Part shown: piece after piece, positions 13,401 to 62,347 of the stretch
Layout of the letters: every line of letters begins with the position of its first letter
Numbering within the stretch: the stretch's first letter is position 1
Source of the DNA: Tridacna crocea
Taxonomy: Eukaryota; Mollusca; Bivalvia; Cardiida; Cardiidae
Assembly: GCA_943736015.1 (NCBI GenBank)
Contig: OX031058.1
Coordinates: forward strand, 20,671,001-20,735,000
Reading direction: 5' to 3'
Length of the DNA stretch: 64,000 nt
The notes under the pieces: generated by a model
What the model saw: only the letters and a program-made list of their open reading frames with translations
Database searches by the model: none
Told to the model about the DNA's origin: nothing
Translations under genes and position numbers: made by a program

Positions 13401-16400
13401 TGCTGTAATATCAGTAAATGGACTGTCCCTTTCTCTCTGAAGACACTGGACCTTTAATTTACCTTTTACCAAAGTATTTCATGTTTGGCGACCCGGAAAA
13501 AAGGGGCAGACGTGCTGATTTGTTCCACTTTCTGTTTTGTCTCACATCCTCAACCTCAACACCCCCACCCCCCGCAAAAAAAGTAATCAATATAATAGTT
13601 CAAAAACATCTGTGAAAAATGAATTTTCAAACTGTGAGAGAAAATACTGGGAAAAAAAGGAATCTTTCTCGAGCTTCAACAATATGTTTTATTTTTTCAA
13701 GGACAATTACAACCATTTGAACCACCTTTATTCTATCGTCTCCATATACTGGGTGTAGGACAAAACCCCAATGGGACAAAAGCCCACTAGGACAAAAGCC
13801 CACTAGGATAAAAGCCCACTGGGACAATAGCCCAATAGAACTTTTAGTTCTAATCATGTATTGAATTAATAAGTTTCATATATATTATGTGACTTGTCTC
13901 TACAAAATGTAGAAAACATTATGTGAAAAGCAGACAATGCAGATAAGCAGCATTTTCTTCTTCTTTCACATGGTTGTTATAAGAATGGGAAATGTTTCAG
14001 AGAATTAAACATTGAGAAGAGAGAAAAGCAATTTGATCATACTGATCATAAAATTTCTACAAAAATGATTGAAAAATTATTTTTATACACTTTTATAAGC
14101 AGTGGGCATTTTTCCTCCCTGTCAAAATTAGCAGTGAGCTTTTGCCCAGTGGGCTTTTGTCCAGTGGACTTTTGTCCGTCCCCCATAATTATGCTAAGTA
14201 TATGGACGTCGTCGGGTGAAAACATTCACCGTAACTATTTAAAACCCTATCCCGCATAGCACAAGCTTTTCACAACCTTGAGAAATATAGCTTTTAAAAA
14301 TGTTGTAGAAAAGTGATAGAGTTCTGGTAACCACTTTTTTCTCCCTTTCCATTTACTATCCTTCTTACAAACCATTTCATTTTTTCAAGTCACATTCAAA
14401 TTGTCTCAAATTTTCGTTTGGTAAAGAGTTAATGAAGAGTCAGTATTGTAAGAAATTGGGGAAAAGGGAGAAAAATAACATTAATAAAACTGCAATAGAC
14501 CTTTCCTATTTTATGTCTGATTGATCAACTAATGGTTGCCGAATTCCGTGGCTAAGTTTTTTAACGTACTGGCTTGAAATCCAGGAATTGGTGGTTTGAT
14601 TCATTTAAACTATTAAAGTAATAATTTTTGTTTTAAAAAAATCGTTTCAGTATCTGCAAATAGTCAGAGACAGTTTATTTCCCAAAAACTGGGATATTAT
14701 ACATTTTCAATTTACAGCGAAATTCCTGACTTTGAAATAATATTTAGACTCTCTATAGTCGCATTTTTGTCATGTTCCTGTTTGAACTTCCTTATAAGTT
14801 AACTGTCGTAATAACAAAATTCAATTCAAATCTCAAACCTACCATTAAATTCCTTCTAGAAAAAACAGAAGTTCGAGCACCGACTAACACATAAGTGTCA
14901 TAATTAAGCGTTTATCCTGTTCAGCCTTACATTGATATCAATTGTAAAGGTTTGAAATGGTTAAAATCTGTTACAGAGGATAAGTCTGTTCTAATTACTG
15001 GCCCTAACAGATGCATTTTTCTGCCCGAACATTTTTTTTTGTTTTCAAGTGCATTATTATATGTAACCTGATTTAACCGGTCCCAGTTTAACTGTATATT
15101 TGCACTTATTTCTTTCGGAATGGGCTGGGGGAATTTGTTTTTCAAATTATTAAACCTTATCCTACTAATTAAATGACACTTTAAAGCCGATCGTGAAATC
15201 CCAAATGTTATTTCAGAGGAATATCTCGAGGAAAAATGTCTCCGTATCGGACAGTGTAGATGATCTAGGATCAGACTGCACATTCTTCGTAGTCTGATCT
15301 TAGTCTATATTGGCTGCAAAAGATCATTGAGTCGCGCTTGGCAGCCTGAGGGTTAATGCAGTCTGCATACAAAAAGTTCTATCAACACGCCCGATGGGAG
15401 ACAGCGCTTATTTTACTACTTTATTCTCTGAAGTCTACCGAAAGATTGTGTATCTTCGAAAAAGGTGATTAATAAAACTACCGGCACAGGTTTAGGTTTT
15501 TTGGATCTTTCAAAATTTTCGGAAATTAATTAATGTAAAAAATGAAAAAATACTAAAAATGCCCATTCTAGGTATCATTTCGGATTTATTCATATCTATA
15601 TTACTGAAAATAAACTAAAATCCACCTACAAAGTAAATAAAAAACTAATTTTCGATAAAAAAATGAAGCTCTCTTAAATTTGAAAGCGTTTTGATCGACC
15701 CTCAGTGATCAAATCATTGTGATATACAAGTGTATGCGATCTGATAAAATACAAAGGAAGAGTATTCGGACACTACATCTATCCGAATATATAATAAGCT
15801 GTAATTAATGAACAAGGCCACTAAAATCGGGCAAAACAGGCACAAATGACTCGGAATAGTGTCTATTAACTGTATGCAAAATTTGTTGCTTTCGTCCGGA
15901 GTGTAAACAATTTGCTAAAGAATCGAGTTAACAGACCGGACTACTGGTTGCAATCTGGTTTTGAAAAAATTGTTGCAAAAGGACAAATTGCTCACACTGA
16001 GTGATTTAGCCATTTCCCACAAAATTTTCCCTTGCATTTATTTGTAACTCCAAAATTTTTGTGGATGAAAAAGAGTAGAAGATATTGTGGGAAAAGGAAA
16101 GAGTTAGAGTTTCTGCTTTTCCCCTCATGGTGTTTGAAAGCAGTTCTCTAATTCAGCTAAATTCAGCTGCAGATGTGGAGGGAAAAAATCATTATATGTA
16201 ATACTGAGTGAAAAATTCCTGTTGCAGCTTTGGACAGTCATGCATTTTTCTCATTGGGGGGCCAACAAAAGAGACAGAACCTGTTCCCTTATTTCTGCAC
16301 AGTGGTGATATTTGCCTAATGACTGGTGAAGCTCGTTTATCCTACCATGCAGTACCAAGAATTTACCCATCAGAAAAACAGTATTTCCATGCATGTTTCC

Positions 16401-16876
16401 ATGATAATAGTCATATTAAAGACTCACAATCTGTGATATCTGTGAAAGAAAGAGACAGTGAAGAAAATCAGCAGGATGACAGTGCTGTTTCTGAAGAAGT
16501 TTCAGAGAGGAATATAATGGATAAAACTGTGATAAATATGGAATCTTCACACGACGGAATAGATAATGATATAGATACTGAAGAAGATCCATACAGTAAA
16601 TCAGAAAAACAAATAATATATAAGGAAAATAATGATAAACTTGCAATTGACTCTGACGAGTCTATTTTTGTGACACAGACTGTCAATGGAAATTATTGTA
16701 CAGTTGATGAGCTCTCCACTTTGATGGACGTAGTAGTAGAGAATACAGACTGGCAACCATTTGAAAATTATTTAGCACATTCTAGGATAAACGTGAATGT
16801 GAGACAAGTCTTGAAACCAGGCCTGACGCTCAAACCAAGACCGAATGTTATAGTGTCATGTCAAGGAAAGACATAA
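1317..16876 (+). CDS. ALKBH1: ALKBH1-like Fe(II)/2-oxoglutarate dioxygenase, five exons, 5' end missing
   Basis: Exons are 1317-1416, 4327-4486, 8642-8720, 10334-10527 and 16228-16876. All junctions are AG/GT, phases agree, and the total is 394 codons including TAA. Numbering from the ATG at 1320, the AlkB core is visible. The iron ligands are H161 and D163 (GHTDVSELD) and H217 (LSYHAVPR). The 2-oxoglutarate arginines R363 and R369 sit in SRINVNVRQV with the six-residue spacing of human ALKBH1. Family members demethylate tRNA (m1A) and act on mitochondrial tRNA-Met; roles in DNA 6mA and AP-site cleavage are reported or debated. Human ALKBH1 has about 80 residues before the point matching LKPVTEW, so the ATG at 1320 is probably internal and one or more exons lie upstream. 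An acidic insert of about 95 residues separates H217 from the arginines. Introns are full of MITEs. Confidence 0.93.
1552..1776 (-). mobile_element. M1 MITE
   Basis: Reverse-orientation copy: CTCTTTCCCCGACGACAAAA at the left, a decayed central hairpin, and GATAAAGGGTTAA at the right. It lies in the first visible ALKBH1 intron. Confidence 0.8.
1777..1942 (+). repeat. Repeat B fragment joined to an array-element end
   Basis: 1777-1885 matches repeat B (GCCCTTCAGATTTTGGGAC, then ACGGGAGACACATTC). It runs into TTTTTAGCTCACCTGAACAC, a decayed copy of the hairpin end that bounds the 145-bp array at 5192. Confidence 0.6.
1996..2135. mobile_element. M1 MITE, degenerate
   Basis: The central hairpin region GGAAAAAGAAGAAATTGCTGG...CATTTTCTTC is recognisable. 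The ends are eroded. Confidence 0.5.
2136..2835. other. Intron of ALKBH1 without a recognised gene
   Basis: It contains eroded MITE pieces, a short GACAGATGGACAGA-type simple repeat (about 2615-2660) and poly-T runs. No exon with AlkB similarity was seen. Confidence 0.6.
2836..3063 (-). mobile_element. M1 MITE
   Basis: A complete copy bounded by TTAA at both ends (TTAACTCATTACCAAACGAC ... GGTAATGGGTTAA) with a long central palindrome around 2953-3003. Confidence 0.85.
3383..3611 (-). mobile_element. M1 MITE
   Basis: TTAA at both ends, terminal TTCTTTACCAAACG and GAAAGGGTTAA, and a near-perfect central palindrome (GTGTGAAAAGGAGAAAATGC and its complement). Confidence 0.85.
3819..4052 (+). mobile_element. 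M1 MITE
   Basis: Starts TTAACCCTTTACCACACAAT and ends GGTAGAGTTAA, with an intact central hairpin. It lies about 275 bp upstream of ALKBH1 exon b. Confidence 0.85.
4327..4486 (+). CDS. ALKBH1: ALKBH1 exon b
   Basis: The acceptor TTTTAG precedes a phase-1 exon reading GFIVIQNPF...YWIKRCL...NTTNLDAHM, which corresponds to human ALKBH1 after its GYPG motif. It ends AAG GAT GA|gtatgt (phase 2). The family's Asn-Leu-Asp-x-His segment is present. Confidence 0.93.
4790..5191 (+). repeat. Repeat B, copy 1
   Basis: An unclassified dispersed repeat beginning GTAGCCCTTCAGATTCTGGG. The block CCAGGTCGACAAAAACAGG and the TTAA-containing site AGCTTTAAACATAG (5031-5043) are diagnostic. Other copies lie at 18478-18942, 48251-48622 (inverted) and 50830-51325. 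Position 5034-5037 is the unoccupied TTAA that carries a MITE in the 18-kb copy. Confidence 0.75.
5192..7510 (+). mobile_element. Hairpin-bounded element D1 carrying a 145-bp tandem array
   Basis: The element opens TTTTTAGCTCACCTGAGCAC and folds back at once (GAGCAC...GTGCTC, CTCACC...GGTGAG). It closes with GGGCCATCATGGCCCTCTTGTTT-type sequence, again a hairpin. Between them lie about 15 head-to-tail units of exactly 145 bp. There is no credible protein: 145 is not a multiple of three and the same short frame restarts in each unit. The hairpin near the 3' end is Helitron-like, but the last bases are not a clear CTRR, so the class is open. Confidence 0.8.
5298..7440 (+). repeat. 145-bp satellite array
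   Basis: Each unit contains ACTCATGAAAGTTGGTCAGG, a GATATCTCGGACGAGTT block, GGGTCAAAAACTAGGTCAC and TGTACGCTCTAGAGGCC. Successive units start 145 bp apart from 5329 to 6779. Units on the left are nearly identical; those after about 6780 diverge progressively and carry small gaps. Confidence 0.9.
7711..7923 (+). mobile_element. M1 MITE
   Basis: TTAACCCTTTACCAAACAAT at the left, a central GGAGAAATGCTGGTCACC hairpin, and TTTGATAAGAGTTAA at the right. Confidence 0.8.
7928..8320 (-). repeat. Repeat R, uninterrupted copy
   Basis: A dispersed repeat whose complement occurs at 20735-30672 (split by the LINE) and 30664-30914. Diagnostic blocks are GTCTTATATGACGCATCACT, CCAGATTTCTCTAAACTGG (the LINE target in the other copy) and TAGATGAGTATTTATGGAAT. 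Its class is unknown; a solo LTR is one possibility, but no coding part is visible. Confidence 0.75.
8642..8720 (+). CDS. ALKBH1: ALKBH1 exon c
   Basis: The acceptor TTCTCAG is followed by PDLTKDSLLMKLRWATLGYQ and ends ACT AAG|gtgaac (phase 0). It matches the human LEKLRWVTVGYHYNW segment. The phase-2 junction with exon b restores a Glu codon. Confidence 0.93.
8755..9000. repeat. Repeat Q (AGCCTG...CAGGCT palindromic repeat)
   Basis: It has repeated motifs AGCCTGTGCAGGCT and ACAACACTTTATGCAAATGT. Related copies are at 16880-17060 and 33990-34285, where the inverted structure is clearest. It is non-coding and lies in the ALKBH1 intron. Confidence 0.6.
9001..10011. other. Intron of ALKBH1, nothing recognised
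   Basis: AT-rich sequence with scattered stops on both strands and no similarity to other copies in the window. Confidence 0.5.
10012..10304 (+). mobile_element. Two adjoining M1 MITE pieces
   Basis: A decayed half copy (10012-10127) abuts a copy with TTAA ends (10128-10304). The second has lost the right arm of its central hairpin. Confidence 0.65.
10334..10527 (+). CDS. ALKBH1: ALKBH1 exon d (first iron ligands)
   Basis: The acceptor GAACAG precedes EYFSNRVQAFPDDL. The exon carries the substrate/iron core AGIVNYYRMDSTLMGHTD: His and Asp of the HxD iron motif, and the preceding NYY of the family. It ends TTT AG|gtattt (phase 2). Confidence 0.95.
10551..10779 (-). mobile_element. M1 MITE
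   Basis: TTAA-bounded reverse copy (TTAACTCTATATCAAACAAC ... GGTAAAGAGTTAA), 24 bp past the donor of exon d. The hairpin has a few mismatches. Confidence 0.8.
10793..11009 (+). mobile_element. M1 MITE
   Basis: Starts TTAACCCATTACCACATAAT, has a clear central hairpin (GGAGAAAATGCTGG...), and ends TTAAAGGGTAAAAGG. It follows the previous copy by only 13 bp. Confidence 0.8.
11010..11697. other. Intron of ALKBH1, nothing coding recognised
   Basis: It contains two AAGATCAGAC-type short inverted motifs (about 11160-11205 and 11555-11605), each a small stem-loop seen elsewhere in the window (15250-15300, 37445-37715). There is no exon signal. Confidence 0.5.
11698..11870 (+). mobile_element. M1 MITE, right end missing
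   Basis: Starts TTAACTCTTTCCCAAGCAAT, has the central GGAGAAAATGCTGGTAACC motif, and stops at about ATTTATTTTGTTACAG. Confidence 0.7.
12004..12229 (+). mobile_element. M1 MITE
   Basis: A complete TTAA-bounded copy (TTAACCTGTTACCAAACAAT ... GGTAAAGGGTTAA) with a strong hairpin at about 12067-12116. Confidence 0.85.
13755..14190. repeat. Inverted GGGACAAAAGCCCACT clusters
   Basis: Four plus-orientation units at 13757-13838 (GGACAAAAGCCCACT and variants) face three complementary units at 14126-14182 (GTGGGCTTTTGTCC). The spacer holds a decayed MITE core (13909-13975). Confidence 0.65.
14239..14432 (+). mobile_element. M1 MITE, diverged
   Basis: TTAA at both ends. The left terminus is TTAAAACCCTATCCCGCATA and the right GGTAAAGAGTTAA. 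The central hairpin is heavily mutated, suggesting an older copy. Confidence 0.65.
16228..16876 (+). CDS. ALKBH1: ALKBH1 terminal exon (third iron ligand, 2OG arginines, acidic insert)
   Basis: The acceptor TTGCAG is followed by the completed Ser codon and FGQSCIFLIGG, as in human FGQSAIFLLGG. HSGDI, then SYHAVPR (third Fe ligand), and finally AHSRINVNVRQVL with both 2OG-binding arginines. Between them, about 16400-16690, lies a Ser/Glu/Asp-rich, probably disordered insert that human ALKBH1 lacks at this length. The stop is TAA at 16874-16876. Confidence 0.95.
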
Positions 16877-21271: not shown

Positions 21272-22830
21272 TCAGGAGAATCTACCGCTATTCTCAATAA
21301 AAGCATGGACTGCATTAAAGATTATTTCATTTTCAGCAAGGGAGAGATTATTATCTCCAAAAAGGACAACGTCAATATTATAATCAGATATTTCACAAAT
21401 ACATCGTCTGAATGCTGTCCTAATATTACGATAAAATTTGCAAACAAAGAAGTAGTGTTTATTGGATTCTATTTCCCCGCAACGACATAAAGGGTTTTCT
21501 ACAATATTTTTCCAAAATAAGTGTTGCTTTAAATCGCTACATTTATTCCTAAGGCGAGCATGTAAAATCTGCAGTCTTCTTTCTCCATAAAAAAACAGTT
21601 TGTTGGGAATTGGTTTATCTTCATCTAATATACGTTTAAAAGATGAGAGGGAATCTGTCTCCCTTGTAGACTGTGGCAAAGAGTTCCATGCCTCTATGGT
21701 AGAAGGTAGAAAAGATTTCATATAAAGATTAGTTTTGCAGGCGATGTTTGATAAATCATTAGAATTACGAAGATTGTATGTAGTATTACTGCCAACAGTG
21801 GTCGGTACTAGAGAACATAAGTAATTTGGAACTAAACCATTTGCCATTTTGAAAAGAAGAATAAGCTTGTGTTTGTTCCTACGCTGTCTTAATGTTTCCC
21901 AGCCTGATTCTCTTATAAGGTCTGCAATTGATACAAGCTTAGTACATCCCGTTACAATCCTGGCAGCCTCGTTTTGAATCTTGTCAAGTTCTTCCTTTTG
22001 GTATTCATGAACATTATCCCAAATAATATCTCCATATTCAAGAATTGGTCTTATAAATGAAAAATATATGGTTTGAAGTGAAAGGCGATCGAGCTGGTAC
22101 CTCAGACTTCTTAAAACACCTATTCTTTTCCATGCCTTTTCAACGGTACACTGCACTTGTTGATCCCAGTTTCCATCACAAGATAGATAAATACCAAGGT
22201 GTTTGTGAGACTGTACTAATGGGATAACAACATCTGACATAGAAAGATCCGGATGAACAGGTTTGATTCGTTTGCGAGATATTAACAAAGATTTAGATTT
22301 AGAGGGATTGAATTTAACCAACCATCTGTCTGCCCAACTGCTAACCTTATCTATGTCTGACTGTAAAATAGCACCAGATATATCTGGAGTATCAACTACT
22401 AAAGAAAGACTTGTGTCATCGGCAAACAAATTGATACCAGATTCAATATCGTGAACAATATCATTGATATATACCAAAAATAGCAATGGACCTAATACTG
22501 AACCCTGTGGGACTCCCGCTTTTACAAATGATAAATTGGAAGAACCTCCAGAAAGAACGACTTTTTGAGTTCTGTTAGTCAGATAGTCCTGCAGAAATGA
22601 TAAAACTTTACCATATATTCCTGCAGCATGTAATTTGAAGATCAGACCCTTGTGCCACACCTTGTCAAATGCTTTACTAATGTCAAAGAAAACCATCCTT
22701 ATTTCAAAGCCATTATCTAAGGCGCTACAGATTTTATTGTACAAATATGTCAATTGGTTGACAGTAGAGTCACTAGGGAGGAAACCGGACTGATGTGGTG
22801 TAAAAAAATTTGTCTCTTTTATGTGATTAA
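21272..22830 (-). pseudogene. LINE ORF2, C-terminal half (reverse transcriptase and tail)
   Basis: This is the RT-core-to-C-terminus half of the split ORF2. Visible motifs in order: FFDISKAFDKVWHKGL (RT palm), AGVPQGSVLGPLLF, and FADDTSL with the catalytic Asp pair near 22414-22428. Near the end comes a CRCGEIESNKHYFFVC Cys/His motif common in jockey/CR1-type elements. No stop interrupts 21272-22753, and the frame stays open to the LTR junction at 22830. The 3' untranslated part is 20909-21271. The exact clade (jockey, CR1 or L2-like) cannot be set by eye. Confidence 0.88.
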
Positions 22831-23328
22831 TGTTATGTACATACCCAGTTATTCCTAGCTTTGTTCATGTGTGTATCTATTTTTGAATGGTTTTCCCCTG
22901 TTGCTATTTTTAGAACTGGATTCTCTCTTGTGGAATATTGTGCTGGAAGTTTCCAGGCCTTTATACAATCTGATTACTAAGAATTATGCAACTGATTTTA
23001 ACATGAATTTTCTGGAAGTTTCCCTGTTATTATAAAAGGAAAAGCTTTTTACATGTCAGTGTTCACTAGTTAATACATGATTGCCAGACTACAGTGGGGA
23101 TTATCTTGTGTTTGTGTCATAATTAGTGCCTGGATTACATTCAGTTTGGATCAGGATCAGATTGGAATTAAGACTGGAATAGTTTGTCTTCTGAATTTAA
23201 CGTCTAAGGTATTGTTTTGTACTATTGTAATATTGTCACTGTTTATTTGATATTTTTGTTAATAAATTCTGTTAATTGTTATCGTTTGTTGCTGGCTTCT
23301 TCTTTCTAGTTACGCCTGACTCGTAACA
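22831..23328 (+). repeat. 5' LTR of the Gmr1-like element
   Basis: 498 bp, TGTTA...TAACA. A TATAAAAG box at 23031-23038 and AATAAA near the LTR 3' end (23261-23266) are plausible promoter and poly(A) signals. Confidence 0.95.
23031..23038 (+). promoter_or_regulatory. Putative LTR TATA box
   Basis: TATAAAAG lies 200 bp into the LTR and about 225 bp before the AATAAA, a sensible U3/R/U5 layout. The assignment is inference. Confidence 0.5.
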
Positions 23329-23333
23329 GAAAT

Positions 23334-23351
23334 TGGGGGCTCGTCCGGGAT
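23334..23351 (+). promoter_or_regulatory. Primer binding site, tRNA-Pro type
   Basis: TGGGGGCTCGTCCGGGAT begins five bases after the LTR. It is the 18-nt complement of the 3' end of tRNA-Pro (including CCA) used to prime minus-strand synthesis by several retroelements. Confidence 0.9.
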
Positions 23352-23479
23352 TGGAAAATAGACTAACGTATTTGTTTTCCATTTTGGACTATCCATCGAT
23401 TGGAAAATAGACTAACGCATTCGTCTACTAATCAGTAATTATAATACAATTTTGTACTTGAATCCAGCAACAAACAAAC

Positions 23480-26400
23480 ATGTCTTTTGACTTAGATAAA
23501 TTTACGGCTGAACCATCTGTGGAGTTACTGAATTTGGGTAAAAAGACTGATTTGCTTAATCTTGCTAAGCACTATAAATTGTCTGAAATAAAATCTTCAA
23601 TGCGTAAACATGAAATTAAGAACATTTTGGTACAATATTTTGTTGATGAGGAGATTTTTAATGAAAATGCTCTTTCCCTGATAGTTGACATTCAGTCAGT
23701 TTCAAGTTCGAAAGAACTTGAATTAAAACTTCAGATCAGACAGTTAGAAATAGAAAGAGAAAGGGAAAGACAGAGAGAAGAAAGAGAAGAGAGAGAGAAG
23801 GAAAGAGAAAGGGAAAGAGAAGAGAGAGAGAAGGAAAGAGAAGAGAGAGAGAAGGAAAGAGAAAGGGAAAGAGAAGAGAGAGAGAAGGAGAGAGAATTTC
23901 AATTAAGAATGAGGGAAATTGAAATGCAAGAAAGAGCAAATCAGCCCAAGGAAAAGGTTGAATACAATTTCGATGTTACAAAACATATTAGGCTTGTTCC
24001 TCCATTTCAAGAAAAAGAAGTTGATAAATACTTCCTACACTTTGAAAAAGTTGCAGAAAACTTAAATTGGCCAAAAGAGCACTGGACTTTGCTTCTGCAA
24101 AGTGTTTTGATAGGCAAAGCTCGTGAAATTTATACACAACTAGGTGTTGAACAATGTCATCATTATGAGACTGTTAAAGAACTTATTCTCAAAGGTTATG
24201 AGCTGGTCCCAGAAGCATATAGACAAAAATTTAGAAATTGTAAAAAAGATTCTAACCAGACTCATGTTGAATTTGCTAGAAACAAAGAACAGTTATTTGA
24301 TAGATGGTGCTGTTCTAAGAAAATAGACCAAAATTTTGATAAACTCAGACAACTTATGTTAGTTGAAGAATTCAAACGTTGTATTCAATTTGATGTTAAG
24401 ACATTCTTAGACGAAAAACAAGTTGAAACTTTAGAAGAAGCAGCTCGTCTGGCTGATAATTACTATCTTACACATAAAGTTTCTTTTATTGCTAAAGCAA
24501 AACCTACTTCCTCACATCCCCAAAATAAATTTACGTCTGGTAATTCATCTGGCGTGCCCAGTCAATCCAATACACCCAAACCCAATTCTACTAGTGAAAC
24601 CAAAAGTCAATATCCCTTATCTCGACCCACTTGTAACTATTGTAAGAAACCTGGTCACCTTGTTTCTGAATGTTTGAAATTAAAAAGGAAGTTAGAAAGT
24701 GATGAAGCCAAACCAACAGGGCTCACCACTCTTAGGCCAAGGCCACAGTCTTCTATCAAAACCAATACAATTGACATAGTCACAAAACCCAAGTCTGATT
24801 CTACTATGGAGATTTTTGAACCATTTATGTTGAATGGTTTTGTATCACTTTCAGGTGATAATTGCCCACCTACCCCTATTAAAATTTTAAGAGACACAGG
24901 AGCTTCTCAATCTCTTATTTTGGCAGATATACTGCCTTTTTCTGAGAAGACTTCTTCCGGTACTAGTGTCCTTATTCAGGGTGTAGAGTGTGGAACTGTT
25001 AATATCCCTCTCCATCATGTTAATTTGTCATCAGATTTGGTTACTGGGCCTGTGGTTATTGGTATTAAACCTTCCTTACCATTTAAAGGTGTCCATTTAC
25101 TGCTAGGCAATGACTTAGCTGGAGATAAGGTTGTGGTTAATCCACTTGTAACTGACACACCAAATATAGGTCAAACAGATGACCCTATCGAGCAGGAAAT
25201 TCCTGACTTGTATCCTTCTTGTGCAGTTACCCGAGCTATGGCTAAAAAGGCCATTTTGAAAAACTCAAACTCTGACATTGACTTGACGGATACTTTTATC
25301 GGTCAATATTTTAATAATGAGATTAAAAAGTCTCTTGATCCCAGTTTGTCTGATACTCAGACAGACTCGTCAATGTCTTGTCATTCACTACCACGGTCTA
25401 TTGACCAAGGTCACGACACGCTGTCAAAGTCACAGCTTATCCAGGAACAGCAAACTGATCCTGAGATTTCAAAATTAATTTTTAGGGCTTTACCTGAAGA
25501 TGAAATTTCAGAGGTCCCAATGTGTTACTATATAAAGAATGGGATTCTTATGAGAAAATGGCGACCATGTGATGTCCCAGCTGATGATGAATGGGCTGTT
25601 TACCACCAAATTGTGGTTCCAAAGTCATATCGTCATGAAATACTAAGTATAGCCCATGAAAGTCCTATGTCAGGTCACCTAGGTATAAACAAGACCTATC
25701 ACAAAATTATTAATCATTTTTATTGGCCTGGTCTCAAATCAGATGTCTCTAAATATTGTAAAACTTGCCATACATGTCAAATGGTAGGTAAACCCAACCA
25801 AACCATTCCCAAAGCTCAATTACAACCTATTCCTGCTTTTGATGAACCTTTCAGTAGGATACTTATAGATTGTGTTGGTCCTTTACCTCGAACCAAGTCA
25901 GGAAATGAGTATCTCTTAACAATTATGTGTACTTCTACACGTTTTCCTGAAGCTATTCCTTTAAGGAACATCAAAACAAAGTCAATAGTCAAAGCTCTTA
26001 TAAAATTTTTCACATTTGTTGGTCTTCCAAAATCAGTTCAGTCTGATCAAGGGTCAAATTTTATGTCTGGTATATTCCAACAGGTCATGCATGAATTAGG
26101 AATCAAGCAATATAGGTCATCCGCTTATCACCCTGAAAGTCAAGGTGCTTTAGAAAGATTTCACCAGACATTAAAAAATATGATAAGGTCATATTGCTTT
26201 GACACTGAAAAAGATTGGGATGAGGGCATCCATTTGTTACTATTTGCAGTCAGAGAATCTGTACAAGAATCTCTTGGTTTCAGTCCTTTTGAATTAGTTT
26301 TTGGCCATTCTGTTCGTGGACCTTTAAAACTTTTGAAAGAGAAATTTCTCTCAAATGATGAAACACCTTTGAATTTACTGCAGTATGTTTCTGACTTCAG

Positions 26401-28225
26401 AAATAGATTGTCTAAGGCATGTGAGGTTGCTAGGTCTAATCTTAAAACGTCTCAAGGCAAAATGAAAGCAAGATATGACAGCCATGTGATTGATAGAAAA
26501 TTTAAACCAGGTGACAAAGTCCTTGCTCTTTTGCCAGTACCTGGCAGACCTCTACAGGCAAGATATTTTGGACCCTACACTATTGACAAGAAAACAAGTG
26601 ATTTAAACTATATAATTAATACTCCAGGAAGGCGTAAAAACAAACAAATGTGTCATATAAATATGTTAAAGGAATACTTTGACAGAGATAGCTCTATTTC
26701 AAAACCAATTACAGTTGTAAACACTGTCCCACAAGAATCAAATGTATCTGATCTTGAAATAAATTCGGACTTTATTGATAAATCTGATCCTGGTCCATCT
26801 AAACTTGAGAATTCTGATATTTTGAGAAACCTTAACAACAAACTTTCTCACTTGGAACCATCACAACAAGAAGAGCTGAAACAGTTGATACATGAATATG
26901 AACATTTATTTCCTGATATCCCCACAAGAACAGATAAAATCTATCATGATGTCATTGTGGAAGATTCTACACCAATAAAGCAACATCCATATAGGATGAA
27001 TCCTTTGAAACAGAAATACCTCCAAGATGAAGTAAAATACTTACTGGAAAATGACTTTATTGAACCTAGCCAGAGTAATTACAGTTCACCATGTATATTA
27101 GTACCCAAATCAAATGGAACTTATAGAATGTGTACTGACTATCGTAAGGTGAACTCTGTGACAAAAACAGACTCTTTTCCAATACCAAGAATTGATGACT
27201 GTATTGACAAAGTTGGAAATTCTAAATATGTCACCAAATTTGACCTGCTTAAAGGATTCTGGCAAGTTCCACTGACTGATAGAGCAAAAGAAGTATCAGC
27301 CTTTGCTACTCCAAACGGTCTGTACCAATACAAAGTTATGCCGTTTGGGATGAAAAATTCTCCTGCAACGTTTCAGCGGCTTATAAACAATGTTATATGT
27401 GGATTAGATGGCTGTGATGCATATATTGACGACGTCATCATCTACTCAGACAGTTGGAGTGACCACCTTCAAAGAATCAGGAAGTTCTTCGACAGACTCA
27501 GTAAAGCAAAACTGACTGTGAATCTTGCAAAAACTGAATTTTGTCATGCTACTGTAACATTTCTAGGACATCTTGTGGGACAGGGTCAAATTAAACCTTT
27601 AGAAGCTAAGGTCAATGCTATCTCTGAGTTTCCTGTGCCTAAATGTAAAAGACAGCTGATGCGATTTCTTGGTATGGCTGGCTACTATAGGAAATTCTGT
27701 AAAAATTTCTCAGGTATTGCTGAACCTTTAACAAATTTACTTAAGAAAAGCACAAAGTTCAAATGGAATGACAAATGTCAAGATGCATTTGATCGTCTGA
27801 AAGCCATACTTAAGAGCGCACCAGTTCTCTTGGCACCTGATTTTGACAAATGTTTCAAATTAGCTGTTGATGCAAGTGATGTTGGTATTGGTGCTGTTCT
27901 TTTACAAGAAGATAATAATGGTATTGATCACCCAGTTTGTTACTTTTCTAAGAAGTTTAACAAACATCAGAAAAATTACTCTACCATCGAAAAAGAGTGT
28001 CTTGCTTTAATTCTGGCAATCCAGCAGTTCGAAGTTTATTTAACCTCTTCAACTTCACCAATTGTTGTATTCAGTGATCATAACCCTTTAAGTTTTCTAC
28101 ACAAACTTAAGAATAAGAATCAAAGATTACTGAGGTGGAGTTTATTGCTTCAAGAGTTTAATCTTGACATAAGACACATAAAAGGGAAAGATAACATTAT
28201 ACCAGATGCTCTTTCAAGAGTTTGA
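23480..28225 (+). CDS. Gag-Pol polyprotein of the Gmr1-like retrotransposon
   Basis: 1581 residues with no frameshift between gag and pol. 1-75: helical N-terminus with a SAP-like look. About 78-154: extreme Glu/Arg coiled coil. 171-333: gag capsid region whose end (245-333: EAYRQKFR, FDRWC, LMLVEEF, TLEEAARLAD) resembles the SCAN fold. 385-398: CCHC knuckle CNYCKKPGHLVSEC. 472-475: protease DTGA. About 725-767: integrase HHCC zinc region. Catalytic D797, D856 and E892 (exactly 35 residues between the last two), followed by a GPY-type C-terminus. About 1189-1400: reverse transcriptase with YIDD (1315-1318). From 1464: RNase H, ending with a DALSRV motif. It starts at the ATG in ACAAACATGTCT. 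All catalytic residues expected for each enzyme are present. Confidence 0.95.
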   Translation: MSFDLDKFTAEPSVELLNLGKKTDLLNLAKHYKLSEIKSSMRKHEIKNILVQYFVDEEIFNENALSLIVDIQSVSSSKELELKLQIRQLEIERERERQREEREEREKEREREREEREKEREEREKEREREREEREKEREFQLRMREIEMQERANQPKEKVEYNFDVTKHIRLVPPFQEKEVDKYFLHFEKVAENLNWPKEHWTLLLQSVLIGKAREIYTQLGVEQCHHYETVKELILKGYELVPEAYRQKFRNCKKDSNQTHVEFARNKEQLFDRWCCSKKIDQNFDKLRQLMLVEEFKRCIQFDVKTFLDEKQVETLEEAARLADNYYLTHKVSFIAKAKPTSSHPQNKFTSGNSSGVPSQSNTPKPNSTSETKSQYPLSRPTCNYCKKPGHLVSECLKLKRKLESDEAKPTGLTTLRPRPQSSIKTNTIDIVTKPKSDSTMEIFEPFMLNGFVSLSGDNCPPTPIKILRDTGASQSLILADILPFSEKTSSGTSVLIQGVECGTVNIPLHHVNLSSDLVTGPVVIGIKPSLPFKGVHLLLGNDLAGDKVVVNPLVTDTPNIGQTDDPIEQEIPDLYPSCAVTRAMAKKAILKNSNSDIDLTDTFIGQYFNNEIKKSLDPSLSDTQTDSSMSCHSLPRSIDQGHDTLSKSQLIQEQQTDPEISKLIFRALPEDEISEVPMCYYIKNGILMRKWRPCDVPADDEWAVYHQIVVPKSYRHEILSIAHESPMSGHLGINKTYHKIINHFYWPGLKSDVSKYCKTCHTCQMVGKPNQTIPKAQLQPIPAFDEPFSRILIDCVGPLPRTKSGNEYLLTIMCTSTRFPEAIPLRNIKTKSIVKALIKFFTFVGLPKSVQSDQGSNFMSGIFQQVMHELGIKQYRSSAYHPESQGALERFHQTLKNMIRSYCFDTEKDWDEGIHLLLFAVRESVQESLGFSPFELVFGHSVRGPLKLLKEKFLSNDETPLNLLQYVSDFRNRLSKACEVARSNLKTSQGKMKARYDSHVIDRKFKPGDKVLALLPVPGRPLQARYFGPYTIDKKTSDLNYIINTPGRRKNKQMCHINMLKEYFDRDSSISKPITVVNTVPQESNVSDLEINSDFIDKSDPGPSKLENSDILRNLNNKLSHLEPSQQEELKQLIHEYEHLFPDIPTRTDKIYHDVIVEDSTPIKQHPYRMNPLKQKYLQDEVKYLLENDFIEPSQSNYSSPCILVPKSNGTYRMCTDYRKVNSVTKTDSFPIPRIDDCIDKVGNSKYVTKFDLLKGFWQVPLTDRAKEVSAFATPNGLYQYKVMPFGMKNSPATFQRLINNVICGLDGCDAYIDDVIIYSDSWSDHLQRIRKFFDRLSKAKLTVNLAKTEFCHATVTFLGHLVGQGQIKPLEAKVNAISEFPVPKCKRQLMRFLGMAGYYRKFCKNFSGIAEPLTNLLKKSTKFKWNDKCQDAFDRLKAILKSAPVLLAPDFDKCFKLAVDASDVGIGAVLLQEDNNGIDHPVCYFSKKFNKHQKNYSTIEKECLALILAIQQFEVYLTSSTSPIVVFSDHNPLSFLHKLKNKNQRLLRWSLLLQEFNLDIRHIKGKDNIIPDALSRV

Positions 28226-28447
28226 AATTCCAATAGTTATTTTCCCTATATCATGTTTAAACTGAATTTTTAAATTGTACTTTCATTACCTGGATTATTT
28301 TCATTTGTCTGAAATAATTAATATTTGAGTTTGCCATTTCCTCTGTAATACTTCAGTTAAAGTATTATATACATGTATATAAATAATATTGCAAAAAAAG
28401 AAAGATTTATTTCATAAACCTTTCTTTTTTCTTTTCAAGGGGGGAAG
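28226..28447 (+). promoter_or_regulatory. Element 3' untranslated region, hairpin and polypurine tract
   Basis: After the stop codon, an imperfect stem (AAAAAAGAAAG...CTTTCTTTTTT, 28394-28430) directly precedes the polypurine tract AAGGGGGGAAG (28437-28447), which abuts the 3' LTR. The tract primes plus-strand synthesis; the hairpin's role is unknown. Confidence 0.85.
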
Positions 28448-28945
28448 TGTTATGTACATACCCAGTTATTCCTAGCTTTGTTCATGTGTGTATCTATTTT
28501 TGAATGGTTTTCCCCTGTTGCTATTTTTAGAACTGGATTCTCTCTTGTGGAATATTGTGCTGGAAGTTTCCAGGCCTTTATACAATCTGATTACTAAGAA
28601 TTATGCAACTGATTTTAACATGAATTTTCTGGAAGTTTCCCTGTTATTATAAAAGGAAAAGCTTTTTACATGTCAGTGTTCACTAGTTAATACATGATTG
28701 CCAGACTACAGTGGGGATTATCTTGTGTTTGTGTCATAATTAGTGCCTGGATTACATTCAGTTTGGATCAGGATCAGATTGGAATTAAGACTGGAATAGT
28801 TTGTCTTCTGAATTTAACGTCTAAGGTATTGTTTTGTACTATTGTAATATTGTCACTGTTTATTTGATATTTTTGTTAATAAATTCTGTTAATTGTTATC
28901 GTTTGTTGCTGGCTTCTACTTTCTAGTTACGCCTGACTCGTAACA
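28448..28945 (+). repeat. 3' LTR of the Gmr1-like element
   Basis: 498 bp. Identical by eye to the 5' LTR except A at 28918 in place of T. Confidence 0.95.
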
Positions 28946-30485
28946 TTAAAAATATGCTTGTAAATTATTCTTTCAAGTACTTTCTCCATTGTGTTTAGGA
29001 GTGATACAGGTCTATAATTAGATACAATAGAAGGATCACCGCTCTTTAAAATAGGACACACGAGGGATGTTTTCCAGGTAGTGGGAAGGACACACTTGTC
29101 GAGACAAAGATTAAATAATCGACAAAGTGGAGTTGAAATCTGAAGTGCTGATTCCAGTAACATTTTGTTATTAATACCATCTGGACCTGATGCTTTCCCA
29201 ATATGAAGAGTTTTTAATACATCGAAAACCTCATTTGGGGTGATGACTATACTGTTAAGCTTCTCACCAACAAATTGCTGGTAATCACTCGGAAGAGAGT
29301 TTAAAGAGTCGTCAATCATAGACTGACTGGAGAAAAACGAATTCAAAACATTTGCTTTTTCATTATCATCCACTGCAAATCTGTCGGTACTGGAATCAAA
29401 AATGGGTGGCAGTGTTGATGGTGAGCTTGAAGTCGGGCATATAAACGACTTTAAAATTTTCCACCAGTCACGTGGATTTAAGTTACCAGATTTAAGTTTT
29501 AGTGCCATTCGATCAAAGTAATCTTTTTTCGCAAATCGAATACTAGAAATTACTTCATTTCTTAATCGTTTAAATTTCAGCCAGTGCTGATCAGAGTTGG
29601 TCCTTTTTGCTCTTTGATAATATCTTTTTCGTTTACGTGTTTTTCTTTTGATTTCTAATGTTATCCAAGGCGGATCGTGAGGATTTATAGTGACAGTTTT
29701 ATTAGGAATTGATTGAGATGCTTTTTCAATTAAGACATTCGAAATATTCTGCGCGTATATATTTTCATCATCATTATAAACAGTATCCCATTCTACCTCG
29801 GATAAACTTTTCCTTAACTGAAAATAATCGCCGCTATCATATTTCCAAATTCTTCGTTTAAATGACTTATATCTGGGTTTTAAAAAATTGAAAACGCCAA
29901 AGATGGGACAATGATAACGGACATTTAAATCAAGACAGGGTTCCCCTACTCCTGAAGTTAGAATTGATTCTTTGTTCTTCACGAAAAGAAGATCTTTGAC
30001 TGACATTGAGTTTTCAGTAAAATGAGTTGGCTCCTCAATGTACTGAGTAAGATTGAACTGTTTACAGATCGAGTCTGTTTTTCTGAAATGTGATTGATCC
30101 ATTGTGTTTAAATTGAAATCACCCATTATGATAATGTCAGTGATATTCGTGTCAACTGCAAGAGCGATAGAGTCCTCAATTAGAGAAGTATACATTACAT
30201 TTGAATTGGGTGGTCGATAAAAGACACCATAGAGAACATTCCTACTATTACTTAGTTTTATTTCTATCCAAAGGCATTCTAATCTATTAGGTTCTAAATC
30301 ATATCTACGCTTGTAAACAATTGTATCTTTAACATATAGAATCACACCACCATACCTGTCCCCAATTCTATCTTTACGTTCAGGTGGGTGAAAAGTAGGG
30401 AAGAGAAGATCATTAGATGCGTAGTTACTATGTAACCATGTTTCTGTAAAGGACAGCACGTCAAAGTAAGAGAATTCCGAAACCA
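28946..30485 (-). pseudogene. LINE ORF2, N-terminal half (endonuclease to RT start)
   Basis: The truncated APE-type endonuclease shows LSFTETWLHS and GDFNLN, but the usual Ser-Asp-His before the C-terminal strand reads RYHCPI, so the catalytic Asp appears lost. Its first residues are missing at the 5' truncation. The early RT region follows (GKASGPDGINNKML, NYRPVSLLNTMEKVLERII). The frame runs without stops up to the LTR junction. Truncation and the lost Asp make this copy unable to move by itself. Confidence 0.88.
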
Positions 30486-30663
30486 AGTTTAGAGAAATCT
30501 GGAGCTAAAACAGTTCTCATTTCTCCTCAAACGTATTGATGAAAGCAATTTTCTACATTGCTTCTTTATAGAGCGTAATGTTACAGTCAGTCCGCTTTCG
30601 GGGCTAGCGATGCGTCATATAAGACAGGTCGATCTTCGAAGAATATGACATGCGCAGAAAACG

Positions 30664-30914: not shown

Positions 30915-31200
30915 CAGACAAGCCCGCAAAGCTCAGTTGGTAGAGCGTAAGACTCAGGATAATGAGAGTGTGGGTTCGATTCCCACGGCTGGCCATCTAA
31001 AATTACTAATAGTCTTTCGGATGAGACGTTAAACCGAGGTCATTAAACCTGTACATAGCACGTTAAAGAACTAGGCGAAACTCGGGATGGGTTTTGTCCG
31101 GTATCTGCACTATCCCCCATAACAATACTAAGTCTTCAAGGGGGCGTCGCCCATATGGGAAACCCGGGGCGACGATAAATAAACGCAAATTCATTCATTC
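30915..31200 (+). mobile_element. tRNA-derived SINE
   Basis: 286 bp flanked by a perfect 12-bp duplication AAGAATATAACA (30903-30914, 31201-31212). The head has Pol III A and B boxes (AGCTCAGTTGGTAGAGC, GGGTTCGATTCC) and a CCA. The middle has TCGGATGAGACGTTAAACCG, which I recall as the conserved central domain of a widespread animal SINE superfamily (Meta type). The tail is an ATTC repeat. It is not a functional tRNA gene; the arms do not pair as a cloverleaf. Confidence 0.88.
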
Positions 31201-34575: not shown

Positions 34576-34701
34576 AAAATCACGAATCCCTGAGGTGAGG
34601 TGCGCACGCTACAGTTTCATCAGACAAGATCTGACCTTCATAACAGCTACCAAGATCGGTGGGAATATATTACCCGTAAAGAGATTCACATAGAGAAGAA
34701 G

Positions 34702-35149
34702 ATGGCAGGTAATGAAAACGCAAATCATCCGGACGAAAAGAAGAGTTTGAAATCTGATTTCGACGATACAATCGACGATCAATGCAACAGCTCGACAGCC
34801 AAATTCATGAATGGAAAAAATGGCGGCGAAGCTTGTGTTGAATTACCCGAAGACAGCAACTCCGAGGTTTCATTCAGCGGTCTCGGAAAGGAAGAGTTGA
34901 TGAGATTTGCCGATGATCCATTCTGGGTTAGAGTACGAATTATTTTGTTTGCCTTATTTTGGATTGGATGGATTCTGATGTTGGTCGCTGCTGTCGTTAT
35001 CATTGTTCTAGCGCCACGTTGCCCCGAACGACCAAACCTAAAATGGTACGAGACGAATGTCGTGTACAAAGTTGATCCGAAATCGTTCAAGGACACAAGC
35101 AGTAACGATGCAACGGCAACTATTGGAAAGGGCGTTGGAGATCTTAAAG
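34702..35149 (+). CDS. SLC3-like exon 1
   Basis: The first in-frame ATG of the open stretch, with a good context (AAGATGG). It encodes an acidic N-tail, GLGKEELMRFADDPFWVRVR (4F2hc-like), the membrane helix, APRC and the start of the ectodomain. It ends CTT AAA G|gtgcg. The stop codon follows soon in the intron. Confidence 0.92.
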
Positions 35150-38100
35150 GTGCGAATTATGATATATTATTTTACTAATTTTTGCATGGCATACGTGACC
35201 GGTTCAAACAAAATTGAATATTGCATCATATTTATCGGATGTCAGAAGATTCGGACCCAAGAAGATTCGGCCCAGGGCCTTCCAGCGATTTTCGAGAAGA
35301 TTCGGCCCAGCAGGTGAGAAGATTCGGCCCCGAAGGTGAGAAGATTCGACCCAAGTTGTATTATATTGTTTGTACTAGTAAAATTACCTTATTGAACTAA
35401 CCATTCTTAAACGTTTGAGTAATCTTAATCGCCCATATTGTTTTGCAGAATGTAACGATTATTACCGTGTTCTGCTAACGCCATTATTAGTTGATTTTAG
35501 TGGTGTACTTCTCATCCTTTTTTTGGAGAGGATTAAGCACAATTGATGAGAAACAGAGAGAACTCGGACCAGTTTTCATATTTTGTTTTTGTATTATTGG
35601 CTGTATGTTTTGTTTGCTTTAACAATCTAGGAGCGTAATTTTCTCTTTGTACTGGAACAATCTTACTGAGACACTGAAAAAATCGACTTGAACTTTATTT
35701 GCACATTATTTTGCCATGGAAAAATTACTCTTGTTGTGAAATTCCTGTAAATGAGTAATACATGCATTGATTTTACCGTAATTTGCTTAAATTTTGGGAC
35801 AGTAAAAAATAATTAATTTTTTTCGTGTCCCAAAACTTTGGTCTACAAAAAATGATTATTTTGTCAGCTGTCCCAAAACTTATGGTCAAACAAGACTATC
35901 TGTCCTACTGACAGTCACTTGCCGCTAACCCGTTGAATATTGCCGACGTTGAAATATTGGAACGTCACTGATGTCAGGTTTGCAAGGTGATCTATTTTTA
36001 GACAGATTGGAATTCCACCGATCAATTTGAGCACTAAGAGTTTAAAACTTCGCTTTTTCTCATTATTTTTGTTGATTATTAACTTGGCACTCATAATTGT
36101 CTGCGTCTTTGGATCGCGATGAAGATGTTATTGTGCGTTTGTAGATCAATTCGCAACATATCTTACCTGCTTACATGTACGTGAGGTGACGTTAATTCCA
36201 CTCTGACAAGTACCTACTCGGACCGATCTCAAATTTGATTGGTTCGTCGATCTTCGATCGATAAACCTTGGGTAAAACTGTGTACCTTGATTTCTATTTA
36301 TAGACATTTCAAACTCGATTGACCATGAATTACACGCGTGTCAACTCTGTCAACTTCGGATGTACACACGTTATGGATCTTGGATAGAAGTTATCACACC
36401 CTTTTTACAGTTACGTCGGATTTCTGTTTGATTTAGTGGTATTCGATTTAGGGTTTAAAATAGACTGTCAGGTGATCGTTTTTTTGTCTTGAATCAGGTA
36501 ACTCCCATTGAAATCGTGAGGGTTGGGAAGCATGCTTACGACGTTACGTGTGAAGAAATAAAACTACGCGAAAGCCGAAATAAATATTTGCAAACAAACG
36601 TTTTCAAACGGATTGAAAGATTTTCTTTTTCTCTAAATAGCTATTCACTGTCCCAATTCTTTGGAACAAAAAAATACAGATCTCGCTTTGCAATTTTTAG
36701 TATGTCCCAAATCTTTGGGTCATGAAAAATAATTATTTTCGCGATTTTTGATGGTGTCCCAATTTGTTGGGTGTCCCAAAACATACGCAAATTACGGTAC
36801 CTATTACTTCTTCAAACGAAACATGTAGACAGGAGAAAGATGTGAACTTGTCAATTTCAAAACATTTTTGGTTGACAATTTAATATGGCTCAGGAGTTAA
36901 CTATTATTATGGGATATGAAAAAAAAAAATTAATTTTAAGATCATTTAAGAAAACATGTTGGCCACCAGCAAATTCTCTCCACTCATGATGTTATGCACA
37001 TTAAGACATCAGACATTAATTTAATTTTTTCACAACTTGAAAAATGTAGACTTGTCAAAAAAAAAAAAGTTGATTTGCATTGTAGAAATTGAATCTGGTT
37101 CATATGGTTGGGATTCTTTTGAAAAGATATAAAACATTTCAGAAAATGAAGAAAAGTTGGCTGCCAGCAATCTCTCCATAATCTGCATTGTCATACAAAC
37201 TTTAAAAAGCCAGTTCAAGTTGAACTTGTTAAAAAGCCGAGAGATAACTTTTTCCCAGAAAAATCAAAACTATGAAAAATACGATGACATAATTATAGAA
37301 CTTCTCCAAGTCAATCAACAATAACACTTCACAAAGTGATAACGCGTGTCTGACTGTAATAGGATTAAACCCTGCACCCCATTTTACTCACCATATCGAA
37401 GAGTGTACTTCAACATCATATCACACAGAATTTCAATCTGGTCTCAAGATCGGATCGCAATTTACTGCAGTCTGATCTTGCACCACACTCTCTACAATAT
37501 GTAATTAACTAAAAACAGTAACTAGGTTAGAAGATTTTCTGACAAACCAAGCAGTAATATATAGACATACCAAAGCCATCTAACGTCAAGATCGGATCGC
37601 AATTTACTGCTGTCTGATCTAGCGTCACAATCCCAACAAGATGTAATTAACTTTAAACAGAAATTAAATTTGGATTTTTCTGAGAAGCCAAGTAGTAATT
37701 TGGCGATCCTGTAAAGGTGTTAAATAGATCAGATCAGATTGCACCCTTTCTTGTCCGTCCCAGACAATGATAATGAACGTAACATTTGCGGACGATTTTT
37801 TGAACATTGTACCATTCTTAAAGACCTCCAAGAACATACGAAAACGATGTAGATCAAGCAGAAAAAAAATTACAGTCAGTTTCTCGTTTTTCCAATTTCT
37901 TTCAAAAGCCTTCTTTCACATTGTCCTTAAGAGTCTGAGTTGTCACGTTAAAGGCCTTAAGTTACAGTCTGGAAATTGATACATTTGTGATATCCGACGG
38001 TATTATGTCCTAACTAGATAAAAACCTTTTTTGCTAATGTTTCATGTACATAAGATCACACATACCAATAAAAAAAATGTAATATAGCGGTGCATTCAGT

Positions 38101-61088: not shown

Positions 61089-62347
61089 TTTTTAGCTCCA
61101 CTTGCCAAAGGCCCAGCGGGCTTATGTCATGGCCCGGCATCTGTCATTCGTGCGTTCGTCTGTCCGTCCGTGCTTTTATTTCAAACATCTTTTTCTCTGA
61201 AACTATCTATCCAATTTTGATGAAACTTCACAGAAATGATCCTGACATGGTCCTCTTTAGAATTCCATTCAAGAATTTGAATTCTTCAAAAAACTGTGGT
61301 TGCCATGGCAACTAAACTGAAAAATATTGAAAATTTTGAAAAATCTTCTTTTCTGAAACCATAAGGCCTAGGGCTACCAGATTAAGCGTGTCACTTTATC
61401 TAGTGGACTTCTACCAAGTTCCTTCAAATAATAGCCCTGGGGTCAAAATTTGCCCCACCCCAGGAGTCACAAGTTCTATATGGGCTTATATAGGGAAAAC
61501 TTTAAATCCTTCTGGTACCTAGCCATAGGGTCTAGGGCTACCAAATTTGGCATGAACCTTTATCAAGTGATTGTCTACCAAGAGTTCCCAAATGATAGCC
61601 CAGGGGTCAAATTTGACCCGGCCCTGGGGGGTCACAAGTTTTATATGGGCTTATACAGGGAAAACTTTAAAAATATTTTCGTACCAAGCCATAAGGCCTA
61701 GGGCTACTCAATTTTGCATCCAGCTTTATCAAGTGGTTGTCTACCAAAGGTGCCCAAATTATAGCCCTGGGATTAAATTTTGTCCGTCCCGGGGGTTCAC
61801 AAGTTTTACATGGGCTCAAGTTGGGAAATTTTTAAAATATTATTTGTACCTAGCCACAAGGCCTAGGGCTACTAAATTTTGCATGTAGCTTTACCTAGTG
61901 GGCATCTACCAGGAGGGCCCAAATCATAGACTTGGGGTCAAGTTTGTTCCCACACTAGGGGTCTCAAGTTTAACATGGGTTTTTGTGGTTAAAACTTTCA
62001 AAGTATTCATGTTACTAACTGTAATAAAGAGTAGGGGTACTAAGTTTAGCTCTGTCTCATTGGTTTCATGCTTTACAGGGCCTTTTATTGAGACAATTAC
62101 AAATTGTAGACCTGTATTGTTTGGTATGGGGCTTTATCTTGTGGACTTCACTAGCATTCAAGTAATTATAGCTTTGCAGTCACAATTGGCATTGCCCAGG
62201 TGTCACAACTTTCTCGTAGGAATTTATAGAAAAAAAATTGTATGTCCTCTAGTTTGAAACCAATTGGCCAAATATTGTAATGTTTGGCTTGTAGTGTTTT
62301 TACTTATTAGCCAATGGAGTGATACTGGGCCATCATGGCCCTCTTAT
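61089..62347 (+). mobile_element. Hairpin-bounded element D3 with a 165-bp array
   Basis: Begins TTTTTAGCTCCACTTGCCAA with GCCAAAGGC and the CGTCTGTCCGTCCGTGC block. Ends TGGGCCATCATGGCCCTCTT, the same closing hairpin as D1. Inside are about five units 164-167 bp apart with GTCACAAGTTTTATATGGGC and GGCCTAGGGCTAC. Confidence 0.8.

What the first reader, a model, noticed from the sequence alone, without database searches (positions are those of the whole stretch)
22831..28945. Intact Gmr1-like retrotransposon: integrase upstream of reverse transcriptase
The single ORF orders its domains gag, CCHC knuckle, protease (DTGA 472), integrase (D797, D856, E892), reverse transcriptase (YIDD 1315), RNase H. 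Ordinary Ty3/gypsy elements place integrase last; Gmr1-like elements are the known exception. This copy has every catalytic residue, matched LTRs, primer site, polypurine tract and target duplication, so it looks capable of movement. Whether this lineage is described in molluscs I cannot tell.
Basis: partly seen in the sequence, partly recalled or inferred. Interest (0 to 1): 0.88.

Follow-up and report, generated by a model that had tools for sequence, protein, structure and literature searches.

The report
Intact integrase-first Gmr1-like retrotransposon
This is a complete, recently inserted copy of a known kind of jumping gene (a Gmr1-like retrotransposon) in which the cutting enzyme is encoded before the copying enzyme, and its many near-identical copies suggest it has been moving in this animal's genome recently.

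Summary
In detail: 22831-28945 is a complete LTR retrotransposon with LTRs identical at 497 of 498 positions, a 4-bp TTAA target duplication, PBS, PPT and one 1581-aa frame ordered gag, CCHC, protease, integrase, RT, RNase H. The order is not an assembly artefact: 135 of 135 listed database proteins matching both domains are integrase-first, while 3 of 3 other Ty3/gypsy elements read in the same genome are integrase-last. Its Gag carries a SCAN-type capsid domain, a published mark of Gmr1-like elements. So it is a member of the known Gmr1-like kind; no Gmr1 reference sequence was available for a direct tree. Its family is young: 150 of 150 scored RT matches are at least 99% identical, 95 of these 150 lie in frames of 1540 aa or more, and 15 of 30 LTR pairs compared show no substitution. 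Coding differences between copies are mostly silent. In the passages read, Gmr1-like elements are named in crustaceans and annelids; I found none named in molluscs. I could not confirm that the host is a mollusc.

The parts
22827..22830 (.). target-site duplication TTAA, left copy
   Evidence: 32 of 32 readable copies have a 4-bp duplication
22831..23328 (+). 5' LTR, 498 bp; TATAAA at 23031, AATAAA at 23261
23329..23333 (+). 5-nt spacer GAAAT between LTR and PBS
   Evidence: same in 40 of 40 copies in which it could be read, of 54 5' stretches
23334..23351 (+). primer-binding site TGGGGGCTCGTCCGGGAT (tRNA-Pro type is recalled, not tested)
   Evidence: identical in 36 of 40 copies
23480..28225 (+). 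single gag-pol reading frame, 1581 aa
23747..23896 (+). in-frame tandem repeat coding a Glu/Arg-rich stretch of Gag; a likely source of the frame-length differences between copies (inferred)
24209..24475 (+). SCAN-type capsid domain of Gag
   Evidence: 2.5e-11; 18 of 18 members, the window and 17 relatives
24632..24673 (+). CCHC zinc knuckle
   Evidence: below Pfam cut-off; motif
24893..25114 (+). aspartic protease, DTGA to LLGND
   Evidence: motifs only; no Pfam protease hit
25616..25789 (+). integrase zinc-binding H2C2 domain
   Evidence: 5.7e-23
25847..26155 (+). integrase core (Pfam match 25847-26134) with D797, D856, E892
26564..26671 (+). integrase C-terminal module: YFGPY motif and Integrase_p58_C (below Pfam cut-off)
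27101..27571 (+). reverse transcriptase, YIDD at 27422-27433
27839..28159 (+). RNase H; the frame ends at 28225
28437..28447 (+). polypurine tract AAGGGGGGAAG
   Evidence: identical in 34 of 36 copies read
28448..28945 (+). 3' LTR, 498 bp
28946..28949 (.). target-site duplication TTAA, right copy

Best explanation
It is a complete, recently inserted member of a Gmr1-like Ty3/gypsy family with PR-IN-RT-RH order. Likely cycle: the LTR drives a full-length RNA; one frame gives a Gag-Pol polyprotein; the protease cuts it; the SCAN-type capsid assembles particles; RT copies the RNA from a tRNA primer at the PBS and a second primer at the polypurine tract; the integrase joins the DNA to a 4-bp staggered cut at little-selected sites. 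Shown: anatomy, order, 4-bp target duplications, recent insertions, silent-biased divergence between copies. Inferred: transcription, cleavage, particle formation and current mobility.
For: Structure. Integrase-first in 135 of 135 listed database proteins matching both domains; 3 of 3 other gypsy elements read in this genome are integrase-last (Pfam on two of them). RT tree splits integrase-first from integrase-last at 100/99. SCAN hit in Gag and in 17 of 17 relatives; SCAN label on 120 of 120 listed Gag relatives, of 2386 found. 32 of 32 readable insertions with 4-bp duplications, 27 different tetramers; 15 of 30 LTR pairs without substitution, 14 of them fully identical. pN/pS 0.16 for IN (27 of 30 copies) and 0.12 for RT-RH (29 of 30).
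Against: No Gmr1 reference sequence entered the trees. With Ty3 included the IN split is weak (40/8 full; 82/78 core), with Ty3 on a very long branch. PDB sequence searches did not link the Gag to solved SCAN structures. The copies studied are the best RT matches, so they are biased to young ones, and the database proteins are the closest listed relatives, most found with a query that begins at the integrase C-terminus. 55 of 150 copies lack a frame of 1540 aa. No RNA, protein or mobility evidence.
Confidence: 0.93

Rival explanations
1. An integrase-first lineage that arose independently of Gmr1 within Ty3/gypsy and only resembles it.
For: No Gmr1 reference sequence could be tested; the mollusc survey lists 16 new MolGy clades whose domain order was not given in the passages I read.
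Against: SCAN-type capsid, reported in Gmr elements only among frog LTR elements (PMC4131045), plus the shared order; the 13 integrase-first rows form one group in the RT tree.
Confidence: 0.05
2. The domain order is an artefact of assembly or of a local rearrangement of an ordinary gypsy element.
For: None found.
Against: 29 of 30 other genomic copies compared, this one included, have integrase in register upstream of RT, and so do 135 of 135 listed database proteins matching both domains; clean LTRs and empty site.
Confidence: 0.01
3. A Ty1/copia element, which also has PR-IN-RT order.
For: Domain order alone.
Against: RT matches RVT_1 and the Ty3 RT structure best; integrase best matches Ty3 and foamy-virus integrases; no copia-type RT family among the Pfam hits at 0.01.
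Confidence: 0.01

Closest known systems
Gmr1-like Ty3/gypsy retrotransposons (Gmr1 clade; Goodwin and Poulter 2002 seen only as a citation)
   Same: Gypsy-type RT and integrase, integrase upstream of RT, SCAN-related capsid
Ty3 of yeast
   Same: Best solved relative of both RT-RH and integrase; same enzyme classes
   Different: Integrase lies after RNase H in Ty3 (chain 7q5b: RT-RH match 583-1008, integrase match 1080-1373)
Ty1/copia elements
   Same: PR-IN-RT order
   Different: Different RT and integrase sequence class
SCAN-domain zinc-finger genes of vertebrates
   Same: SCAN domain, reported to derive from a Gmr1-like capsid (PMC3406341, PMC4592553, passages)
   Different: Host genes; here the domain is still inside a mobile element's Gag

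Membership tests
Gmr1-like Ty3/gypsy | Ty3/gypsy-type reverse transcriptase and integrase | tested here: met
   RVT_1, RT_RNaseH, Integrase_H2C2, rve; Ty3 is the best solved relative
Gmr1-like Ty3/gypsy | integrase encoded upstream of RT | tested here: met
   three control elements in the same genome show the opposite order (Pfam on two)
Gmr1-like Ty3/gypsy | SCAN-related capsid in Gag | tested here: met
   Pfam SCAN 2.5e-11, 18 of 18 members of a Gag alignment, the window included; PDB sequence searches negative; fold not tested
Gmr1-like Ty3/gypsy | integrase-first elements group apart from integrase-last ones in both RT and IN trees | tested here: inconclusive
   met for RT, 100/99; for IN 100/99 without Ty3 but only 40/8 with Ty3 and 82/78 on the core
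Gmr1-like Ty3/gypsy | RT and IN cluster with Gmr1 itself | not testable with these tools
   no named Gmr1 sequence turned up in the collections used
Ty1/copia | copia-type RT | tested here: not met
   RVT_1, Ty3 best match
Retrovirus | env gene after pol | tested here: not met
   222 bases lie between the pol stop at 28225 and the 3' LTR at 28448; no ORF of 100 aa or more is listed there

The most novel reading that the evidence does not exclude
The integrase-first order and SCAN-type capsid are very old in animals: close relatives occur in a record named as the octocoral Paramuricea clavata (66% RT identity, integrase C-terminus directly upstream of RT) and in one named as the bivalve Solemya velum (71% integrase identity; a fragment without RT). 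In this genome such a family still runs as several coexisting, selection-maintained lineages: copies differ by about 5% at silent sites although their own LTR pairs differ by about 0.2%.
Probability: 0.4. Interest if true: 0.5.

Novelty: new member of a known kind. Interest (0 to 1): 0.33.

Why it matters
It gives a well-preserved, recently inserted example of the gypsy lineage with reversed integrase order, with ordinary gypsy elements in the same genome as controls. That makes it possible to ask what the order changes in particle assembly and Gag:Pol balance, and it shows the retroelement setting of the SCAN domain that vertebrates are reported to have taken into transcription factors.

Tried and rejected
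Assembly artefact, Ty1/copia and retrovirus readings were tested and rejected (see rivals and membership). A TTAA-specific target preference, suggested by this copy, was rejected: 27 different tetramers among 32 insertions. LTR size class as a marker of sublineages was not upheld: on the RT tree of 29 copies the long class (18 of the 23 copies with a size class) needs 4 changes against a shuffled mean of 4.6 (copy 13 dropped, 6 copies without class). Three scans of viral contigs found no relative. SCAN genes elsewhere in the genome, host identity and the primer tRNA were not tested: those searches did not complete.

Rows dropped: 3' ends of 17 of 24 further copies were not fetched; of 37 copies with both ends fetched, 32 gave both junctions (rows 3, 4, 22, 23 and 40 did not) and 30 gave an LTR pair (rows 12 and 19 also lacked the 5' LTR end in the stretch). 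In one search, copies 6, 7 and 13 were left out for IN (one stop, one stop, out of register) and copy 13 for RT-RH (a stop). Of 135 database proteins with both domains, 12 went into the trees: 8 that passed the identity and length filters and 4 near relatives.

Full report
Observation. The element spans 22831-28945. Its LTRs (22831-23328, 28448-28945) differ at 1 of 498 positions and are flanked by TTAA. The PBS begins 5 nt downstream of the 5' LTR, and the polypurine tract AAGGGGGGAAG abuts the 3' LTR. The protease rests on motifs only, with no Pfam hit; the knuckle and the p58_C module are below their Pfam cut-offs.

Surroundings. The insertion lies in a LINE on the minus strand: an endonuclease ORF at 28927-30486 (its last 19 bases lie in the LTR) and an RT ORF at 21272-22753. 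Joining 600 bp of each flank and removing one TTAA gives an open LINE frame through the junction, the expected empty site.

Is the order real? Among 363 proteins held after the three protein searches (3 pieces of the window and the 120 best of each search), 135 matched both integrase and RT, and in 135 of 135 the integrase lies upstream; 45 of them have RT identity below 80%, the lowest being 64%. These lists are capped to the closest relatives, and the RT query began at the integrase C-terminus, so they do not sample gypsy elements at large. As a control, a stretch of yeast Ty3 RT was used to find other gypsy elements in the same genome (132 matches, mostly copies of this family). Three that match Ty3 better were read, and in 3 of 3 the RT lies upstream of the integrase; Pfam confirmed this on two. 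Two of the three are close relatives, so they stand for two lineages. One genome thus holds both orders, and the method recovers both.

Trees. For 17 rows (window, 8 diverse and 4 close integrase-first proteins, 3 integrase-last elements of this genome, Ty3), the RT tree separates the two orders with 100/99 support. The integrase tree does so at 100/99 without Ty3, but only at 40/8 with it, and at 82/78 when each row is cut to its first 255 residues; Ty3 sits there on a very long branch. No Gmr1 reference was available.

Capsid. Pfam SCAN matches the Gag at 2.5e-11 and 18 of 18 members of a Gag alignment, the window and 17 relatives; the 120 best of 2386 database relatives all carry the precomputed SCAN label. 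Passages in PMC3406341 and PMC4592553 say that SCAN derives from the capsid of Gmr1-like elements, and PMC4131045 (passages) reports SCAN in over 50% of Gmr elements only, among frog elements.

Family and age. The RT query gave 2851 loose candidates in the genome; 150 were scored and 150 of 150 match at 99-100%; 95 of 150 lie in stop-free frames of at least 1540 aa and 55 do not. LTR DNA gave 1622 candidates; 40 were scored, giving 40 full-length matches at 97-100% and 3 partial ones. These are the best matches and so favour young copies. Of 37 copies with both ends fetched, 32 had both junctions readable, and 32 of 32 show a 4-bp duplication, with 27 different tetramers; one lies in a GT repeat and is ambiguous in length. 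Of 30 LTR pairs, 15 have no substitution (one of these has a 1-nt gap), 8 have one, 4 two, 2 three and 1 seven; pooled 29 of 16,584. With an assumed neutral rate of 2e-9 to 1e-8 per site per year (not measured here), the pooled value corresponds to roughly 0.1-0.4 million years. The spacer is the same in 40 of 40 copies read, the PBS in 36 of 40 and the polypurine tract in 34 of 36.

Selection and lineages. Between copies, pN/pS is 0.16 for integrase (27 of 30 copies) and 0.12 for RT-RNase H (29 of 30), as expected if mainly copies with working proteins leave descendants. Silent divergence between copies is about 5%, far above the LTR divergence within copies, so several source lineages seem to have been active recently. 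LTR gene conversion could lower the LTR figure. The RT tree of 29 copies is star-like with few well-supported branches (3 of 24 starred), and LTR size classes do not follow it well; that would fit recombination between copies but does not prove it.

How it works. The parts fit the standard LTR-retrotransposon cycle; transcription, processing, particle formation and present mobility are inferred. With one frame and no frameshift between Gag and Pol, the Gag:Pol balance must be set in some other way, such as splicing or differential turnover; this was not tested. The 5-nt spacer between LTR and PBS implies that more than the usual two nucleotides (recalled for retroviruses) are removed from that end before integration.

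Literature. Gmr1-like elements are described as gypsy elements with integrase upstream of RT (PMC6238403, passages). A crustacean study calls its four the first in protostomes (PMC3587641, passages), and an annelid study places a family in Gmr1 (PMC8220671, passages); a second annelid survey notes that this clade was not found in its own analysis (PMC8556966, passages). The mollusc survey's table of 21 gypsy clades does not name Gmr1; 16 of the clades are new ones (MolGy) whose domain order I did not see (PMC6238403). Searches for Gmr1 with mollusc, bivalve and gastropod, and for gypsy with mollusc and integrase upstream, gave no paper that I could see naming Gmr1-like elements in molluscs; I opened 4 of the 20 papers listed and judged the others by their titles and abstract openings. 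Only the held open-access library was searched, and the founding papers (Goodwin and Poulter 2002; Emerson and Thomas 2011, not held) were seen only as citations.

Verdict. A confirmed, well-preserved new member of a known kind, with a young multi-copy family around it. The reported surprise, integrase before RT, is the known mark of that kind.

Noticed in passing
21272-22753 and 28927-30486, minus strand: A LINE with endonuclease and RT is split by the element; its frame is open across the reconstructed empty site.
   Followed up: partly
23329-23333: A 5-nt spacer GAAAT separates LTR and PBS in 40 of 40 copies read, longer than the two nucleotides recalled for retroviruses.
   Followed up: partly
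23329-23480: The leader holds a direct repeat of about 20 bp (GATTGGAAAATAGACTAACG twice), seen; possibly a packaging or structural signal.
   Followed up: no
23747-23896: Minisatellite-like coding repeat in Gag; the 95 long frames among 150 copies range from 1546 to 1619 aa, perhaps through this repeat.
   Followed up: partly
G000:C1:12448800-12460571: Three LTRs spaced 5637 bp apart suggest two elements in tandem sharing an LTR; rows 3 and 4 lie 7 kb apart and may be another tandem.
   Followed up: no
5279-7436, 41502-42572, 61359-61979: Tandem arrays with units of 145, 155 and 165 bp.
   Followed up: no
16208-16876 and 34600-35178: Probable host gene exons: 2OG-Fe(II) oxygenase and SLC3A2 N-terminus.
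   Followed up: no
30922-30994: Rfam tRNA match (37.5 bits) not called by ARAGORN, next to the LINE; perhaps a tRNA-derived SINE.
   Followed up: no
database proteins P0047, P0095 and P0326: Records named after a clam symbiont, a ciliate and a Campylobacter carry close relatives of the element; animal DNA in those assemblies is a likely but untested reason.
   Followed up: no
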